NCBI GenBank assembly: GCA_018902385.1 | Contig: JABSSW010000006.1 | Coordinates: 124,001 to 188,000, forward strand | Reading direction: 5' to 3' | Source: Physcia stellaris | Lineage: Eukaryota; Ascomycota; Lecanoromycetes; Caliciales; Physciaceae | DNA length: 64,000 bases | In this document: positions 26,641 to 47,017 of the stretch, in pieces | Position numbering within the stretch: position 1 is the stretch's first letter | Layout of the letters: each line of letters starts with the position of its first letter | Position numbers and translations under genes: made by a program | Notes under the pieces: model-generated | Databases searched by the model: none | The model's input: the letters and a program-made list of their open reading frames with translations, nothing else | Told to the model about the DNA's origin: nothing

Positions 26641-27442
26641 CCCAACCAGCTTTGGCAGCACCCGGTATCAATTATCTACGGCGTCATGTACTTTACCATC
26701 CGCCGTCTTCTTACGCGAGACTGCCGGGGCCTTAAGCAGCTATACAATTTCGACTATCAGCCTTAACGCTCGGATGCGGATCCCGCAATCGACTTGTCCG
26801 GTTCTGTCATCATGTTCGATACTGCTGTTCACCACGGTATTAGCATTTCATTTTCTACGCTATCTCCTCACTACGGCCCCGCGCTAAGAGGAAGGATCGA
26901 GATGGGTTTGGTCAAGTGCTTGTGGCAATCTGCCCGGTCAGGACCCAGAACACCGGCTTACTGTCGAGCCAGTCGAGCTGGGTTCGTGCTATACTAGGTC
27001 TAGATGCTGCATGAGCATGGGCACCTTTCATATTTTTGCCCTCGCGTGGTGACGATGCCGTCCTTTACCCCTCTTGACCGCTGATGACGTTGACCAGGCA
27101 AACAGTCGTCAAGTTCTGTCGCCATAGTTATTTTGTTTTCCGTATGCGCACCGTGGCTGTAATCATTGGAGATCCTCACCTTAAAGCGCGCGTCGTATTA
27201 CTTTACGGTGTCTGCATAATAGGGTCTTGCGTGGCGCTTTTGACGGCAAGTTCCGGATGAAATCGGACCTAAACCGTTCAAAAAAAATTTCAACCGTAGA
27301 AAACTGTTCACCCTTAATTAAAAGGTAGAATTGCGGTTGCATAAAGGCATCAAAATCCCATTATGACTAGTATCTAGCGGACGATTAATGATCTGTCGTC
27401 AGTCGAAAGTCATGTGCTGGCTCAATTATTTAGGTACATTAA

Positions 27443-27457
27443 GGGCGGGAAGGGTGT
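27443..27457 (+). repeat. left terminal inverted repeat of the piggyBac element
   Basis: GGGCGGGAAGGGTGT directly follows TTAA. It is exactly complementary to the right end at 30354-30368. It is unmutated although the interior is heavily mutated. Confidence 0.85.
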
Positions 27458-28249
27458 TTCGTAGACAGTCTCTTGATAATCTCCACAAGTAGATGCTTTC
27501 CAAAGCCTGTCCACAATGGGCGAATCCTGAGATGTCCTGAGATGATCTCGAGATCACTCATCAATGAAATATGTAATCTCATTGACGTTTCACAAATTCG
27601 CTGTGTAACACATGTGATCATTTCGAAATAAGCTTATTTTATACATGTCTTGTATTAAAAATGTGTGTAATTTTCAATTACATATTGAAAAATAAGGTTG
27701 TTTTAGTTCGTTTCTAGTAATAGCTTAATGATACAATTTTCTGTTCATTCTTTCTCGTCGCGCGTTCGATTTCCGTAATGTTCTCTATAATTTTCAGTAT
27801 TTTCAATACAATGTAAGTGACTATTAAAATGCGCATCGTGTAATAATGCGCATCATACATGTGTTTTCGTGAATATCAATAAAACGTTACGTTTTTGTCG
27901 ATAATTTCAATGCAAATTTCAGATGATTTCAAGATGATTCTCTTCGCATTCAATTAGTGAAATTTAGCGTGTTTTCACGCGATTTTTTCTTTTTCATTTC
28001 AATCATCATTACTTCATCAAATTTACGTGTATATGTGTATAATTCAGTGAAAAAATTCGATAATATATAAACATTCAATAATTAAAATATGATTACATTC
28101 GAAATTCATTTGAAATCACTAAATTATTTTCAAATGTTTCGAAACGTTTTCAGATTTCTTTATTGATCAAAACATTCGTATGATCATTCTTTCGAATTAT
28201 GATAAATTTTGAAACATTCAAACGACACGCATAAATTTACTTTACATGT

Positions 28250-29890
28250 CATACAATAATCAAACGTTTTACGATTCGAACGATGTTATATATTGACATT
28301 TTTGAAATTGAATGCTTGACGTTTTCGAAATTTCGTGTGAAAATTGATCGAACAATCATTTCATTTACAATACGTCGATTTGACACACTTTGACGATCGA
28401 TGTATGATATTTGAATTTCGTAAAAATTTATCAATCAATTTTGAATAAATACACGTCGATTTGAATGATCAGAATTCGTTTGTGATTGATGATGATTTCA
28501 AACGATGTATGCATTCGTATTGATCGAATTCATCATGTATTCGATGATTCGTTTCGTTCATTTGAATTGTTCGAATCGTGATATCGTCAATTCACTTCGA
28601 AGTTGATTTGCACGATTCACATGATTCATATGAAGATTGTATTGCATTGCAATAGTGAGCTGTTTGACGACGATTTTACTGAAATCGTCTCGAAACGATG
28701 CATCGATCGTGAATCGAATTTTTCGTGATGTTTGCTCGTTTGCTTGTGAAATATATGCAATAATAGCAAATGTGATCACGTGATCTCGTTCGAAATTTCT
28801 TCAAACGAAACAATTGATCAATTCATTCACAATTCGATATATTCATTGTTTTAAATTCAATTGTGACTTTTTGCAGCAGCTATTTCTTTCAATTTTTGTG
28901 ATATATTCATTGCATTGTTTCGTACGATGTCACAAATATCAACATTGAAAATCAAAAAGTTTTGACGAAATGAAAATTCGTGAAAAAATTGTCGATAAAA
29001 CAAACGAAATGATGATGACATAAATTGCGTGTAATTCGTTCGCAAAAAAATATATATTGTTTTTTCGTAAATGAGAAATTAATTTTCATAACAATGATTT
29101 CAATAATGTTTTTTACGTTTTCGAGTCGTTTTTGAAAATATATCGATCGTGATATCGTTTTTGTGATATTCGAAATCATCGCGAAATTTTCACATCATGA
29201 AATCGTGTAAAATGTTTTTATCATTGATCAAAACGTATAGAACGAATTTTTTTTTCGCTGATTTGTGTGATAGACGAAATTTGTTATTCATACGATCGTG
29301 AAATTCGATTGCGAATTCGTCAATTGCAAAATGATTTTCAAAACGAATAAACGAGTATAGCTGAAATTTGAAAACGTTGAAAACGTTTTCGATTTTTCAA
29401 AATCATGATGCATTGTTGTATGGCGTTTGTTGATTAAATTCAACGTTCAAATGACGTTCAATGATTTGATATCGATCGCGATTGAATGATAAATTGTTGA
29501 CATTTTTTGAAATCAAAATGATTGAATTGTTGAATTTTTGCAAAATGCTGAGTCGTGAAAATGCGTATAACAATTCACTGACGTAATTTCATCATAATGA
29601 ATGCATTTCAGTTGATTTTTTTGATATAAATCGTTTGATTGATGTGATGAAACAATAAATCGAATATCGATTGCAAAAAAAACAAAAACAACTGAACGAG
29701 TTTTCAAGACGTCATACAAGCGTGACTCAATTGAAATGATCGATAAATAAATGTAATAAAAAATGTATAATCAAATTCAGACGTTTGAATGACTTTCTGC
29801 TGCTTCAATACAGTGAAAGATCGTTTTTTCGATTTCGAAATGAAAACGTTTGCATCGACGCGTGTTTTTTTTTTTTTTTTTTGCACGATA
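28250..29890 (-). pseudogene. remnant of the piggyBac transposase gene
   Basis: Translated pieces on the minus strand keep the order of a piggyBac transposase: N-terminal lysine-rich part near 29.8 kb, the DNFFT catalytic-core block near 29.0 kb, the YNxHM...ADQLR block near 28.6 kb, and a C-terminal part near 28.3 kb. The frame is broken many times and the base composition is strongly shifted towards A and T. The edges are approximate. Identification rests on motif recognition by eye. Confidence 0.7.
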
Positions 29891-30353
29891 ATTAGCTCAA
29901 ATATTGATTGACAAATGACATGTTGTTTATATGATAAAATAAACTCGATTCAGACGATTCAAACAACGTCGCAATGATCAGAATAGACGTATTATTGATG
30001 AAATAAATGATGATTGCAGATGAGAAAAGAAATCGCGAAATAAACACGCTAAATTTCACTAATTGAATGCGAAAGAAATCTTACAACGTCTTGAAACAAC
30101 TAGAAGTGTTTCATTACAACAATGTATTTTTCATCAAATGTCTCGTAATTGGAAACGTTTCGATTACATGACATGATTTGAAAAATATATTTCACGTTTC
30201 GAGCTGTATCAACATGTCTGAGTAATCGAATATTTCAAAAAAGTTAGCATATCGGTATCCGCTCACTGCATCCCACTATGTTTAATACAGATGACGTTCT
30301 CATTTACAGAATCTTATGAAATTTAATAGCATAATCCAGAGCTAATCTGCGTT

Positions 30354-30368
30354 ACACCCTTCCCGCCC
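30354..30368 (-). repeat. right terminal inverted repeat of the piggyBac element
   Basis: ACACCCTTCCCGCCC directly precedes TTAA and is exactly complementary to the left end. Weaker inverted similarity continues inward for about 20 bp. Confidence 0.85.
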
Positions 30369-30490
30369 TTAATGTAATTATACTTGGTGAGGTATATCCA
30401 ATCATCGAGAGCCGGGAGCTCGGGCCGGTCCCACTTCTAGCGCCTGCTTTGCCGGACACGATTTCCTTAACTCCGATGTACAATTACAGC

Positions 30491-30548: not shown

Positions 30549-30591
30549 AGAAATCTCTCGAATTACAAGGACTCCGTCAAGAACCAACAAG

Positions 30592-32945
30592 ATGGATCAG
30601 CAATCAGTCTATTCTTTAAGCGTGCTCGCACCAGATCCAGATGCCAACGAAGACTCCCGATCCCACATACAAGCCCAGTTGCGTGACTTCATACTGGAAT
30701 TTCGTCTTGACAATGCCTTCATTTACAGGTTTGCAAGCCGTTGAAGTATTCCTGGCTATGCTGATCAATTTGCTGCAGAGATCAGATCCGCGAAAATGTG
30801 CTTATCAAGCAGTACTATTGCGACGTGGACATTGCACACTTGATATCTTACAACGAGGAGCTCGCACACAAACTCACCACGCAGCCGGCGGACATAATAC
30901 CTCTGGTAATTGGGAAGCGTAGCAAGTCAGGCAGGAAGCTAATAATTTCCAGTTTGAGTCTGCGCTGAAGCAGTGCACCAACCGAATCGTCTACCCGTCA
31001 AAGAAAGCCGAGGACATCCGCCTTCCTGAACACCAGCTCCTCCTCCACTCCTCCGTCTCTCAGATATCTATCCGCGATCTCGACGCAACCAACATCTCCC
31101 ATCTCGTGCGCATACCGGGAATAGTCATCGGCGCATCAACGCTCTCCTCGAAAGCTACAGCTTTGAATATTCAATGCAGGAATTGCCAGAATACCGACAC
31201 ACTGGTGGTGAATGGTGGCATAGCAGGCATTACACTTCCACGAGTGTGCTCGAGGAAGAGGACAGAGGGCGATCCAACGGATAAATGTCCGCTTGACCCT
31301 TACTTTGTCGTTCACGAGAAATGTCAATTCATCGATCAGCAAATATTGAAGCTACAGGAAGCGCCGGATCAAGTGCCTGTTGGAGAGCTGCCGAGACATA
31401 TCAAGATATCCGCAGATCGATACCTGACAAACAAAGTAGTCCCAGGCTCCCGATGTACAATAATGGGCGTATTCTCGATATACCAGAACAAGGAGTCAAA
31501 GAGTTCCGGCAACGGTGCAGTCGCAATAAGGACGCCATATTTGCGCGCTGTGGGTATAAGCACGGATGTAGATCACACGACACAGGGAAGCGCCATATTT
31601 TCTGAGGAGGAAGAACAAGAATTTCTGGAAATGGCTCGGAGGCCAGACATCTATGATGCTTTCGCTCGTTGCATTGCACCATCCATATACGGAAATGCAG
31701 ACATCAAGAAAGCCATCGCTTGTCTCCTGCTCGGAGGGTCAAAGAAGATACTGCCGGACGGTATGAAGCTACGTGGTGATATCAACGTACTGTTGCTAGG
31801 AGATCCCGGAACTGCCAAGTCCCAGCTGCTGAAGTTTGTAGAAAAGGTTGCTCCAATCGCTATCTATACTTCAGGAAAAGGATCATCAGCAGCCGGTCTC
31901 ACAGCTTCCGTACAACGAGACACAAATACCCGCGAATTCTACCTCGAAGGAGGCGCCATGGTACTGGCAGACGGCGGCGTAGTCTGTATCGACGAATTCG
32001 ACAAGATGCGAGATGAAGATCGAGTGGCAATCCACGAAGCCATGGAGCAGCAAACCATCTCAATAGCAAAAGCCGGCATCACCACCATCCTAAACGCCCG
32101 AACATCCGTACTCGCAGCAGCTAATCCCATCTTCGGACGCTATGACGACCTAAAGACCCCGGGAGAAAACATCGACTTCCAAACCACCATCTTGTCCCGC
32201 TTCGACATGATCTTCATCGTCCGCGACGAGCACGAGAAAGGCCGAGACGAACGAATCGCAAGACACGTGATGGGTATCCAGATGGGTGGTCGCGGACTGG
32301 AAGAGCAAGCAGAAGCCGAGATCCCGGTCGAGAAGATGAAGCGCTACATCAGCTACTGCAAATCGTGAGCTCCCTTTTCCTCCCAAACCCCTACCTATCC
32401 CTTTCCCCTCCCACCAAGCCATAACAATCACCATACTAACCCTCCCTCCCAGCCGCTGCGCCCCCCGCCTCTCCCCCACCGCCGCCGAAAAGCTCTCCTC
32501 CCACTTCGTCTCCATCCGGCGCCAAGTGCACGCCTCGGAACTCAGCGCGAACGCGCGCTCCTCGATCCCCATCACCGTGCGCCAGCTCGAAGCCATAATC
32601 CGCATCTCCGAGTCCTTAGCAAAAATCAGCCTCTCCGCCACCGCAACAGAAGCGCACGTCGACGAAGCCATCCGCCTCTTCCTGGCCTCGACCATGGACG
32701 CCGTCACGCAGGGCGAGGGCCAGGGCAGTCGGGAGCTGATGGAGGAGGTCGGGAAGGTGGAGGAGGAGTTGAGGCGGAGATTGCCGGTTGGGTGGAGTAC
32801 GGGGTTGGCGACGCTGAGGAGGGAGTTTGTTGAGGGGAGGGGGTATAGTGAGCAGGCGCTTAATAGGGCGTTGATGGTGCTGCAGAAGAGGGATACGGTG
32901 CAGATGAGGCAGGGGGGTGGGCAGGTTTTTAGGAGTGGGGTTTGA
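30592..32945 (+). CDS. MCM5: DNA replication licensing factor MCM5
   Basis: Subunit of the hexameric MCM2-7 helicase that loads at origins and unwinds DNA in S phase, in the nucleus. Spliced over introns 30729-30778, 30906-30952 and 32365-32452, the frame is open for about 722 aa, the usual MCM5 length. Seen in order: the N-terminal helical domain ([16 protein letters not shown]), OB fold with a zinc-binding site (CRNC ... CSRK, CPLD, HEKC), AAA+ Walker [10 protein letters not shown], Walker B with DEFDKM, the arginine finger ILSRFDM, and the winged-helix C-terminus ending QVFRSGV. The sequence matches MCM5 rather than the other MCMs. It starts about 220 bp from the transposon end, behind an MCB box cluster. 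No frame break was seen. Confidence 0.97.
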
Positions 32946-45225: not shown

Positions 45226-47017
45226 ATTCTATGCGACTTGCAGAATATATGTATTGGCCTCGCTAAGACTAAAGACTTAACTTCATAGTCAAAGAAAAGG
45301 GTGCCAAGATGAAGAACTACCAGAGGCGATCGAGCGATATTAGGCGACGTAGCATGCATTTTAGTCTGGGACTGCTGGTAGAGGATCGAGCATCTCCGAG
45401 CGGGTGATCTCTTTTATTGGTCGGACAGTACCACTATTCCCAACAGATCGATCACGTAAACAAGCTTTCGCAGATCTTTCTATCCGATGTCAATAATGGG
45501 GATCTCACTACGAATCCGGTCCTCGTACCTGTCGTATTTTCAAGCCACACCAACTCGCAGAGAGAATCGCACCTTCTTAACATCCACCCAATTTCATATT
45601 TCATGAGGCCACTGTTACCCGAAACAGGACCTAATGATGACCTAATGATTATCATGCCACCCGGTGCATTCAGCAGTTCGGGTCATTTCAAGTACAGCAT
45701 ATTTGCGCTCTTACGAAAAGGCGATTACGGAGCAACCCCCGCTCTCTCAGCAATCTTGTGACTATTCTTGGGCGTGCGTGCACTTTTCCGCCCGATGCAA
45801 TGCAGTTCGGATGAGTTTTGCGTATCGCCTTGCCTGTTGTATCATTGCGACGAGGTTTTGGTAACCAACGAACTACACAATATCAAGATTTCCCCTCTCA
45901 CGACGACTTTGAACGTGCTGCTTCTTGCGAATAACCCCGCACAAAGCGAAAACGTGCATGCAAACTGGCATATATATATGTTGGCTAAGGAGATGTATGT
46001 AGGAAAACCCACAGACCTGAATCGATATCCAGGCGGGCCAGTTGTTGGTCAGAGGAGATGTCCATACTTGAATGCAAAGAGATGTACTTCTCGTGTCGCT
46101 CGGACCTGACAGAGAAGCACGGACAGTCGACGAACCCAAACCCCTCTCTTGTGGCAAGCTTTATGCAGCTGTGTCTCCCGCAGACGCCAGAGCGTTCCAC
46201 AGGCCTGAGAAGGACAAATTTCTCTCTGGCATCTGAACAGGGGCTTTCCACGAGCAACTTACGGCCCTTGGCGAACACGAGCTGTGACACGCCACGATAC
46301 AGAGCAGCAATGTGCCTCACAAGCAGAACCTTTTTGCATTCAGCGTCTCATATGGCAAATGCAGACAACGTCTCGTGAAATGCAGTCCACGGAGAACGGT
46401 CCGCTTCCGATGTCGGGGTTTCTCAAGCTACTTACCTAGCCAATGCCGAATAATCGTGGTTTGTGGCGGCCTCACGAAGCATAGTACGGTCCTCACAGAT
46501 AATTACCACGGACTGCGAGGCTTCTCTCATGTCTCGCCTCCTGATCTAGTCGCTGTTACGCCTAACACCAAGCATACAGCTTGGTTGGGCTCTTCTTCCT
46601 CGCACTCTCGCATTGCTCTTCAGTATATGCAATTCAACCCCCATTGTTCCTACTCCTAGTGGGAGGTGAAGAGACGTGTTTCAGCGAAGTTGTCGTGTGG
46701 GGAGGTATCCGGAGACCACGCTCGGGCGATGCCTGAGAACGCACTCACGTAACACCTGAACCGCTCGATACGATAGACCCATTTCAGCGTTTGACGTGGT
46801 TCTGTTCGCAATGGAACGATGAAAAGACGGCCCCCAATTGACGCCAAGATTGCGCCGGCCCTTTGGATAGCGGGGCACAGAGATGGACCCTGAGCAGTGA
46901 GGCTGGTACGAGTATCCATCTTCCCATTGATAGAGAAGACGCATCTCGCTTGTTCATATTCCTTCTCCTCCTTCAACACCTAGATTCGTCTGGATATCTA
47001 CTAAATCATCCATCAGC
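45226..47017. other. intergenic, about 1.8 kb, nothing recognised
   Basis: Several overlapping short ORFs on both strands, none convincing. It contains the promoters of the decarboxylase (minus) and the WW-domain gene (plus). Confidence 0.4.

What the first reader, a model, noticed from the sequence alone, without database searches (positions are those of the whole stretch)
27550..30245. Hypermutation with the opposite context to canonical RIP: CpC and CpT lost, CpA and CpG kept
Seen directly. In a hand count of 28501-28800 I find CpG 24, CpA 16, CpT 8, CpC 0; on the other strand TpG about 31, ApG 5, GpG 0; TpA 12 against ApT about 43 (ratio near 0.3). The same picture holds by eye over about 2.7 kb. 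Classical RIP turns CpA into TpA, so it should deplete CpA/TpG and enrich TpA. Here the lost cytosines are those followed by a pyrimidine. Standard RIP indices would call this block un-RIPed although it is clearly a mutated transposon. It may reflect a differently targeted repeat-mutating deaminase/methyltransferase system.
Basis: partly seen in the sequence, partly recalled or inferred. Interest (0 to 1): 0.85.

Follow-up and report, generated by a model that had tools for sequence, protein, structure and literature searches.

The report
Repeat mutation with reversed target rule
This fungus-like genome disables its repeated DNA with dense C-to-T mutations that hit cytosines followed by C or T and spare those followed by A or G, roughly the opposite of the rule described for the classical fungal defence RIP, so the usual RIP indices miss it.

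Summary
The block is a 2.1-kb piggyBac-like transposon (27939-30077) nested in a 784-bp-type TTAA MITE (27439-30372). An unmutated full-length copy of the transposon survives at G000:C22 (GC 0.455). Against it, 30 mutated segments show C-to-T at CpC 4311/4703, CpT 3898/4827, CpA 623/7274, CpG 213/5688. Four segments have one transversion each against the intact copy, yet 75-86% of CpY and at most 3% of CpR sites mutated: a burst. Both strands are hit, the 5' base matters little, mutation fades inside repeat edges and is near absent from unique flanks. An rDNA relic judged against Rfam gives CpC 28/34, CpT 19/38, CpA 1/33, CpG 0/35. In 30 hand-placed stretches 47 of 280 windows carry the signature; none of the 47 passes the classical RIP indices. 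Two RID-like methyltransferase genes, one with EET in place of EQT, and a DIM-2-like one are present. Best reading: RIP-type defence with nearly inverted specificity (CpC > CpT >> CpA > CpG). The responsible enzyme is untested.

The parts
27439..27938 (+). Left part of a TTAA-ended MITE (TTAAGGGCGGGAAGGGTGT terminal repeat). Outermost ~100 bp without CpY mutation (0 of 26); CpY sites partly mutated nearer the insertion point.
   Evidence: 19-bp termini and inverted arms; collinear with MITE copies at C5:196299-197082 and C14:255341-256123 that are not CpY-depleted; CpY to T by distance
27939..30077 (-). Nested 2.1-kb piggyBac-like transposon copy, hypermutated: CpC+GpG 1 and CpT+ApG 68 against 203 and 210 in the intact C22 copy; CpA+TpG 306 vs 315; CpG 123 vs 121 (counts for 27942-30071).
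   Evidence: end points read by eye and from the empty MITE site
28560..29710 (-). Approximate place of the transposase remnant (DDE_Tnp_1_7), inferred by collinearity with the intact C22 copy
   Evidence: PF13843 E 7.8e-33 on a 383-aa segment between stops of the C22 copy; the window copy itself was not searched
30078..30372 (+). Right part of the MITE with its TTAA terminal repeat; 2 of 14 CpY mutated in the last ~45 bp-40 bp zone beyond 250 bp from the junction
30590..32368 (+). Neighbouring gene of normal composition that reads like an MCM-family helicase; lies outside the mutated zone
   Evidence: ORF 31106-32368, start read by eye; composition. The MCM label is recalled; the family search of its first part failed.

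Best explanation
A RIP-type, homology-directed genome defence converts C to T in repeated DNA on both strands in bursts, with the target rule CpC > CpT >> CpA > CpG. SHOWN: the 3'-base rule, little effect of the 5' base, action on both strands, confinement to repeats with an inward fade at edges facing unique DNA, burst-like action, occurrence in two subfamilies of this transposon, in an rDNA relic and in other AT-rich blocks. INFERRED: repeats are recognised by homology in the sexual cycle, as in RIP, and the work is done by a RID-type cytosine-5 methyltransferase that prefers a 3' pyrimidine, most likely one of the two divergent RID-like proteins of this genome (candidate: the EET paralogue on C6). 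NOT SHOWN: which enzyme, its timing, or whether 5-methylcytosine is an intermediate.
For: Against the intact C22 copy, 30 segments: CpC 4311/4703, CpT 3898/4827, CpA 623/7274, CpG 213/5688; C>T plus G>A 9045 against 1008 for the ten other types. Inference from the mutated copies alone.724.757.095.088. Burst: L016 has 1 transversion and 2 T>C/A>G in 2127 sites, CpY 304/408, CpR 3/554; L028 has 1 and 1 in 1460, CpY 225/283, CpR 2/383. Copy with the lowest CpT loss, L019: CpC 191/201, CpT 113/207, so CpC goes first. Strands 4678/5351 and 3531/4179. Unique flanks: CpY share .477 at 10-60 bp against .49-.51 beyond 410 bp, 29 flanks. Inside edges facing unique DNA: 4 of 104 CpY mutated within 30 bp, 104 of 260 at 40-60 bp.90-.95 beyond 300 bp; edges facing repeats 21 of 45 within 30 bp. 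rDNA relic vs Rfam: 28/34, 19/38, 1/33, 0/35. 1.6-kb subfamily: intact C67 copy vs four mutated copies. 47 of 280 windows in 30 stretches. Methyltransferases.
Against: CpA is a minor target (up to 75/308 in L026; CAT .145 against .052-.087 for CAA, CAG, CAC), so the rule is not absolute. No experiment links a methyltransferase to the pattern. The 30 segments were the best matches to the mutated window copy, so they are not a random draw. CpT loss in the rDNA relic is only half (19/38). Around the window copy the MITE is mutated out to 300-400 bp from the junction (24 of 56 CpY within 250 bp, 5 of 51 beyond) although unique flanks elsewhere show almost none; 2 of the 29 flanks (L018, L043 left) are low in their first 100 bp (.19.28). 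Load correlates with transversions (Spearman .45, p .013), so copies differ in age and some may have been hit more than once.
Confidence: 0.86

Rival explanations
1. The DIM-2-like methyltransferase, not a RID-like one, does the mutating, through the heterochromatin branch of RIP.
For: A DIM-2-like gene is present. A 2026 review states non-CG methylation with CpT preference for Neurospora DIM-2 (PMC13297926, passages). The MITE round the window copy is mutated as if mutation had spread.
Against: CpC is hit even more than CpT. In 29 unique flanks there is almost no spread, and mutation fades inside the edge, whereas I recall the DIM-2 branch as spreading beyond repeats. CpA is nearly spared in the fresh copies.
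Confidence: 0.2
2. Slow decay of 5-methylcytosine placed at CpY (methylation without an active mutator).
For: Cytosine methyltransferase genes exist; the excess is C to T only; mutation load correlates with transversions (Spearman .45).
Against: Four segments with a single transversion against the intact copy already have 75-86% of CpY mutated, a per-site excess over transversions of more than a thousandfold in L016. Confinement to repeats.
Confidence: 0.07
3. APOBEC/AID-like deamination of single-stranded DNA.
For: C-to-T on both strands; CpC prominent.
Against: The rule lies on the 3' side: CCA .089 and CCG .072 are hardly mutated, ACC .951 and GCC .941 are. APOBEC enzymes are recalled to read the 5' side. 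The APOBEC_N search found nothing, but its control rang in none of 14 genomes, so it says little.
Confidence: 0.02
4. UV-type dipyrimidine damage.
For: CpC and CpT are dipyrimidines.
Against: TpC is a dipyrimidine too, but TCA .105 and TCG .025 are spared; restriction to repeats.
Confidence: 0.01
5. The copies descend from a few already mutated masters, so one old event is counted many times.
For: Copies with mutated interiors keep clean ends that a transposase could still use. The highest pairwise correlations are .81 and .70, though these are near-saturated copies sharing 2 unmutated sites.
Against: Patterns are nearly independent between copies (median r .07 over 326 pairs; 1282 of 4000 sampled site pairs fail the four-gamete test in 13 full copies); the rDNA relic shows the same rule.
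Confidence: 0.04

Closest known systems
Repeat-induced point mutation (RIP), Neurospora crassa type, RID-dependent
   Same: C:G to T:A in repeats, both strands, bursts, unique DNA spared, RID-like gene present
   Different: Order reported for N. crassa is CpA>CpT>CpG>CpC (PMC5496416, passages); here CpC>CpT>>CpA>CpG, and classical indices are negative
CpT signature in TEs of Botrytis cinerea, Sclerotinia sclerotiorum and Magnaporthe oryzae (Amselem 2015)
   Same: CpT is a strong target; RID-like proteins present; authors propose RID specialisation
   Different: There CpT goes together with CpA, and the term CpC does not occur in the paper's main text (PMC4352252, passages); here CpC leads and CpA is nearly spared
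RIP in Trichoderma reesei
   Same: Shows that the dinucleotide preference of RIP can differ between fungi
   Different: CpA~CpG, then CpT>CpC (PMC5496416, passages), nearly the reverse of the order here
CpG-type hypermutation in basidiomycetes and truffle (Masc2-like, MIP-like)
   Same: C-to-T excess in TEs, tied by the authors to a methyltransferase
   Different: CpG target (PMC4352252, passages); here CpG is the most protected context. In Rhizoctonia solani AG8 the passage seen calls the mutations CpG-biased although its table lists CpC changes as the closest spaced, and sparser in repeats than in genes (PMC4014442, passages), so it is not repeat-directed CpC mutation as here

Membership tests
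RIP | C:G to T:A transitions on both strands of repeated DNA | tested here: met
   (9045 vs 1008); strands .874 and .845
RIP | Confined to repeats, single-copy DNA spared | tested here: met
   29 flanks with normal distal composition of 39 long enough (41 collected; 10 of the 39 were mutated throughout and taken as other repeats); edge fade. The MITE around the window copy is an exception to the sharp edge.
RIP | Dense mutation in bursts | tested here: met
   Four single-transversion segments with 75-86% CpY mutated
RIP | Minimum length of the duplicated tract | tested here: inconclusive
   A 623-bp derivative and the 784- and 783-bp MITEs are not CpY-depleted; few cases, no controlled test
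RIP | CpA as main target (classical, not universal) and positive RIP indices | tested here: not met
   CpA 623/7274; 0 of 47 CpY-poor windows pass both indices
RIP | RID-type methyltransferase in the genome | tested here: met
   Two RID-like genes. That they are RID-like rests on motifs recalled from memory; no named RID sequence was compared.
RIP | Dependence on RID and premeiotic timing | not testable with these tools
   Needs crosses and deletions
APOBEC/AID deamination | 5'-neighbour preference (recalled) | tested here: not met
   NCN table
CpG methylation decay / MIP-like | CpG loss | tested here: not met
   CpG 213/5688; 0/35 in the rDNA relic at upper-case positions

The most novel reading that the evidence does not exclude
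A second, divergent RID-type enzyme (EET instead of EQT in the catalytic motif) has switched the 3'-base reading of RIP from purine to pyrimidine, giving a genome defence with nearly the inverse target order, which leaves CpA and CpG intact and escapes surveys built on CpA-based indices.
Probability: 0.4. Interest if true: 0.86.

Novelty: new variant of a known kind. Interest (0 to 1): 0.78.

Why it matters
What sets the dinucleotide preference of RIP is open; a 2026 review lists RID catalysis in vitro as not detected (PMC13297926, passages). A genome whose repeats are mutated in nearly the inverse order, and which still holds intact copies as references, makes the question testable, for instance by swapping domains between RID proteins. 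[quoted passage not shown] The rule also changes what the defence does to genes: under strict CpY targeting the only stop codon that one change can make is TGG to TGA, whereas classical CpA targeting makes stops from CAA and CAG (follows from the genetic code; its effect here was not measured).

Tried and rejected
Passive methyl-C decay, APOBEC, UV and single-master descent were considered and set aside for the reasons given under rivals. The idea that mutation simply leaks from the inner transposon into its surroundings (my note) was weakened: 29 unique flanks show almost no leakage. CCG at .48 in the copy-only inference vanished with the intact reference (.072), so it was an artefact of guessing the ancestor. 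The comparison with the MITE copies is noisy: 24 C>T/G>A against 30 other differences at sites where both relatives agree, with CpT 9/50, CpC 9/38, CpA 3/85, CpG 3/53. Viral contigs gave no exact match to the MITE terminus (records near this genome may be left out there). The APOBEC_N search is uninformative. The host's taxonomy was not settled; the one 5.8S match reported is the mutated relic (39 of 2644 candidates scored).

Rows dropped before counting. L003/L004 (pieces of the window copy), L041 (same places as L040), matches under 900 bp. L003, L004, L041, L047; some of its 368 windows come from overlapping loci. L003, L004, L014, L041, L058; of seven further pieces, the C21 part (688 bp, CpY-poor) and the 623-bp C26 derivative (normal) are not in the subfamily comparison. 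rDNA: one search used eight blocks that I picked by eye (22/24, 15/28, 0/23, 0/25); one search recounted thirteen, leaving out LSU 454-635, SSU 1348-1399 and the cut tail.

Literature: ten searches and passages of 15 papers showed no case of CpC-led RIP. Only openly licensed papers are held; Clutterbuck 2011, an older survey that I recall, was not seen.

Full report
WHAT IS THERE. The 64-kb window is G000:C6:124001-188000 of a 44-Mb, 147-contig genome. ORFs that read like a polyketide synthase, intron-bearing genes and RID- and DIM-2-like methyltransferases suggest a filamentous ascomycete; this is inference, the record is unnamed. In this window CpY depletion covers 27626-30250 only.

ANATOMY. 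The outer element is a TTAA-ended MITE with a 19-bp terminal repeat at 27439-27457 and 30354-30372. Relatives of 784 and 783 bp that are not CpY-depleted lie at C5:196299-197082 and C14:255341-256123 and align with both halves. Between the halves sits a 2.1-kb element whose ends read ATCCCCTCCGCATCC in unmutated form. The genome search scored 40 of 89 candidate places and listed 101 matches for it. A 383-aa segment between stops of its intact copy matches DDE_Tnp_1_7 (PF13843, 7.8e-33); that this family is the piggyBac type is recalled.

AN INTACT COPY. C22:31258-33391 is a full-length copy at GC 0.455 with CpC+GpG 203, CpT+ApG 210, CpA+TpG 315 and CpG 121. The window copy has 1, 68, 306 and 123. 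A search with the intact copy found no second full-length match above 85% identity (40 of 77 candidates scored). A shorter subfamily repeats the contrast: the intact C67 copy (GC 0.446; 147, 157, 240, 85) against copies on C8, C1, C26 and C29 (CpC+GpG 1-60, CpT+ApG 42-108, CpA+TpG 222-233, CpG 80-89). So the low CpY is acquired, not native.

SPECTRUM. Thirty segments from 29 loci, 900 bp or more, were aligned one by one to the C22 copy. Fraction of C read as T: CpC .917, CpT .808, CpA .086, CpG .037. In each of the 30, CpC and CpT lie above CpA and CpG. The 5' base matters little (ACC .951, CCC .882, GCC .941, TCC .891; ACT .806, CCT .832, GCT .717, TCT .848; ACA .075, CCA .089, GCA .056, TCA .105). 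In the copy with least CpT loss CpC leads (L019: 191/201 vs 113/207). CpA rises to .24 in the heaviest copy, most at CpApT, while CpG is at most 17/183. A count that uses the mutated copies alone agrees on pyrimidine over purine.

BURST. L016, L017, L022 and L028 each show one transversion, 1-7 T>C or A>G changes and 0-14 gap columns against the intact copy over 1460-2127 sites, yet have CpY 304/408, 318/405, 320/373 and 225/283 mutated, and CpR 3/554, 14/552, 15/506 and 2/383. Mutation patterns are close to independent between copies (median r .07 of 326 pairs; the largest values.81 and .70, come from near-saturated copies). Load correlates with transversions (rho .45), as expected if older copies were hit again.

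CONFINEMENT. Of 41 flanks collected, 39 were long enough; 29 had normal distal composition and 10 were mutated. In the 29 the CpY share is .477 at 10-60 bp.485-.546 from 60 to 410 bp, and .49-.51 beyond; two flanks are individually low in the first 100 bp. Inside the element at those same 29 edges, 4 of 104 CpY sites are mutated within 30 bp, 104 of 260 at 40-60 bp, and .90-.95 beyond 300 bp. At edges facing other mutated DNA it is 21 of 45 within 30 bp. This fits sensing of homology length. The MITE around the window copy does not fit a sharp edge: taking the C5 MITE as ancestor, 24 of 56 CpY and 8 of 111 CpR are mutated within 250 bp of the junction, and 5 of 51 CpY and 3 of 58 CpR beyond. 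It is itself a repeat and may have been a target.

BEYOND THIS TRANSPOSON. In 368 windows of 300 bp outside it, mean CpA+TpG stays at 35-42 and CpG at 11-21 across all GC classes, while CpC+GpG falls from 46 to 0 and CpT+ApG from 40 to 2. Of the 127 windows with GC below .36, 89 have a CpY share under .2, 16 keep 30 or more CpY (many of them in or near the natively AT-rich MITEs), and the lowest CpA+TpG is 28. Thirty stretches (70 kb) placed by hand at round coordinates, on contigs that earlier searches had named, give 47 of 280 windows with CpY share below .2 and 6 between .2 and .35. None of these 53 meets both classical RIP indices; the 15 windows that do are of normal CpY share.

OUTSIDE REFERENCE. 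The one 5.8S match reported in the assembly is a relic on C41. Rfam aligns it with SSU, 5.8S and LSU models. At upper-case consensus positions of thirteen printed blocks: CpC to T 28/34, CpT 19/38, CpA 1/33, CpG 0/35; without the gapped SSU block 27/30, 19/35, 0/28, 0/35. With all consensus letters, where the model itself is variable: 118/194, 68/118, 13/106, 29/143. A first count on eight blocks picked by eye gave 22/24, 15/28, 0/23, 0/25. This test needs no inference from the genome's own repeats.

ENZYMES. PF00145 matches at three places. The C5 gene carries PPCQFFSDAHT and LEQTSG; the C6 gene PPCQSFSPAQS and MEETFG, and its two in-frame TGA lie in what reads by eye as GT-AG introns; the C3 gene carries SPCQGFSQSN and LENVLG. 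The two RID-like proteins share 39% over 307 residues. That EQT marks RID/Masc1 and ENV other C5 methyltransferases is recalled. Amselem 2015 links CpT signatures to a motif in RID (PMC4352252, passages), which makes a RID-side cause plausible. Nothing here shows which enzyme acts.

KNOWN AND NEW. All papers were seen as passages. Reported: N. crassa CpA>CpT>CpG>CpC and T. reesei CpA~CpG, CpT>CpC (PMC5496416); CpA with CpT in Botrytis, Sclerotinia, Magnaporthe, Colletotrichum truncatum (PMC6180176) and Anisogramma (PMC10998396). RIPCAL's authors saw CpT changes overshadow CpA in N. crassa Tad1 and high CpT change in short S. nodorum rDNA repeats (PMC2621366). An Ascomycota survey calls CpT to TpT dominant in its alignments but detects RIP with the classical indices (PMC7882544). 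Monilinia shows CpC to TpT double changes beside CpA (PMC8959702). So CpT as a target has precedents; CpC as leading target with CpA nearly spared did not appear in the ten searches listed or the passages seen, and subscription papers were not covered. I call it a new variant of RIP-like mutation: it works like RIP, meets its repeat-directed features, and fails the classical CpA feature.

Noticed in passing
L086 (G000:C41, 5.8S at 45899-46052): The one 5.8S locus reported (39 of 2644 candidates scored) is a hypermutated rDNA relic with SSU and LSU pieces; whether an intact rDNA copy is assembled is unknown.
   Followed up: partly
window 27937-27938 and 30078-30079; ends listed: The piggyBac-like inner element seems to sit between AT dinucleotides rather than TTAA, which I recall as unusual for that superfamily.
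   Followed up: partly
L085 (C26:370800-371422) and the MITEs in L001/L011: Short repeats (623-784 bp) that are not CpY-depleted suggest a length threshold for the mutator.
   Followed up: partly
L012 (C43) from 1801; L054 (C10:500001-503000): Blocks that have lost most CpC but kept a good part of CpT (L054: 36 and 210 per 3 kb against about 340 and 390 in L048), supporting CpC as first target.
   Followed up: no
G000:C17:351334-361554: A 10.2-kb stretch bounded by the same TTAA terminal repeats, possibly a MITE with nested insertions or a larger element.
   Followed up: no
G000:C6:791557-792528 (L044): A second RID-like methyltransferase gene with EET in place of EQT, besides an EQT one on C5.
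   Followed up: partly
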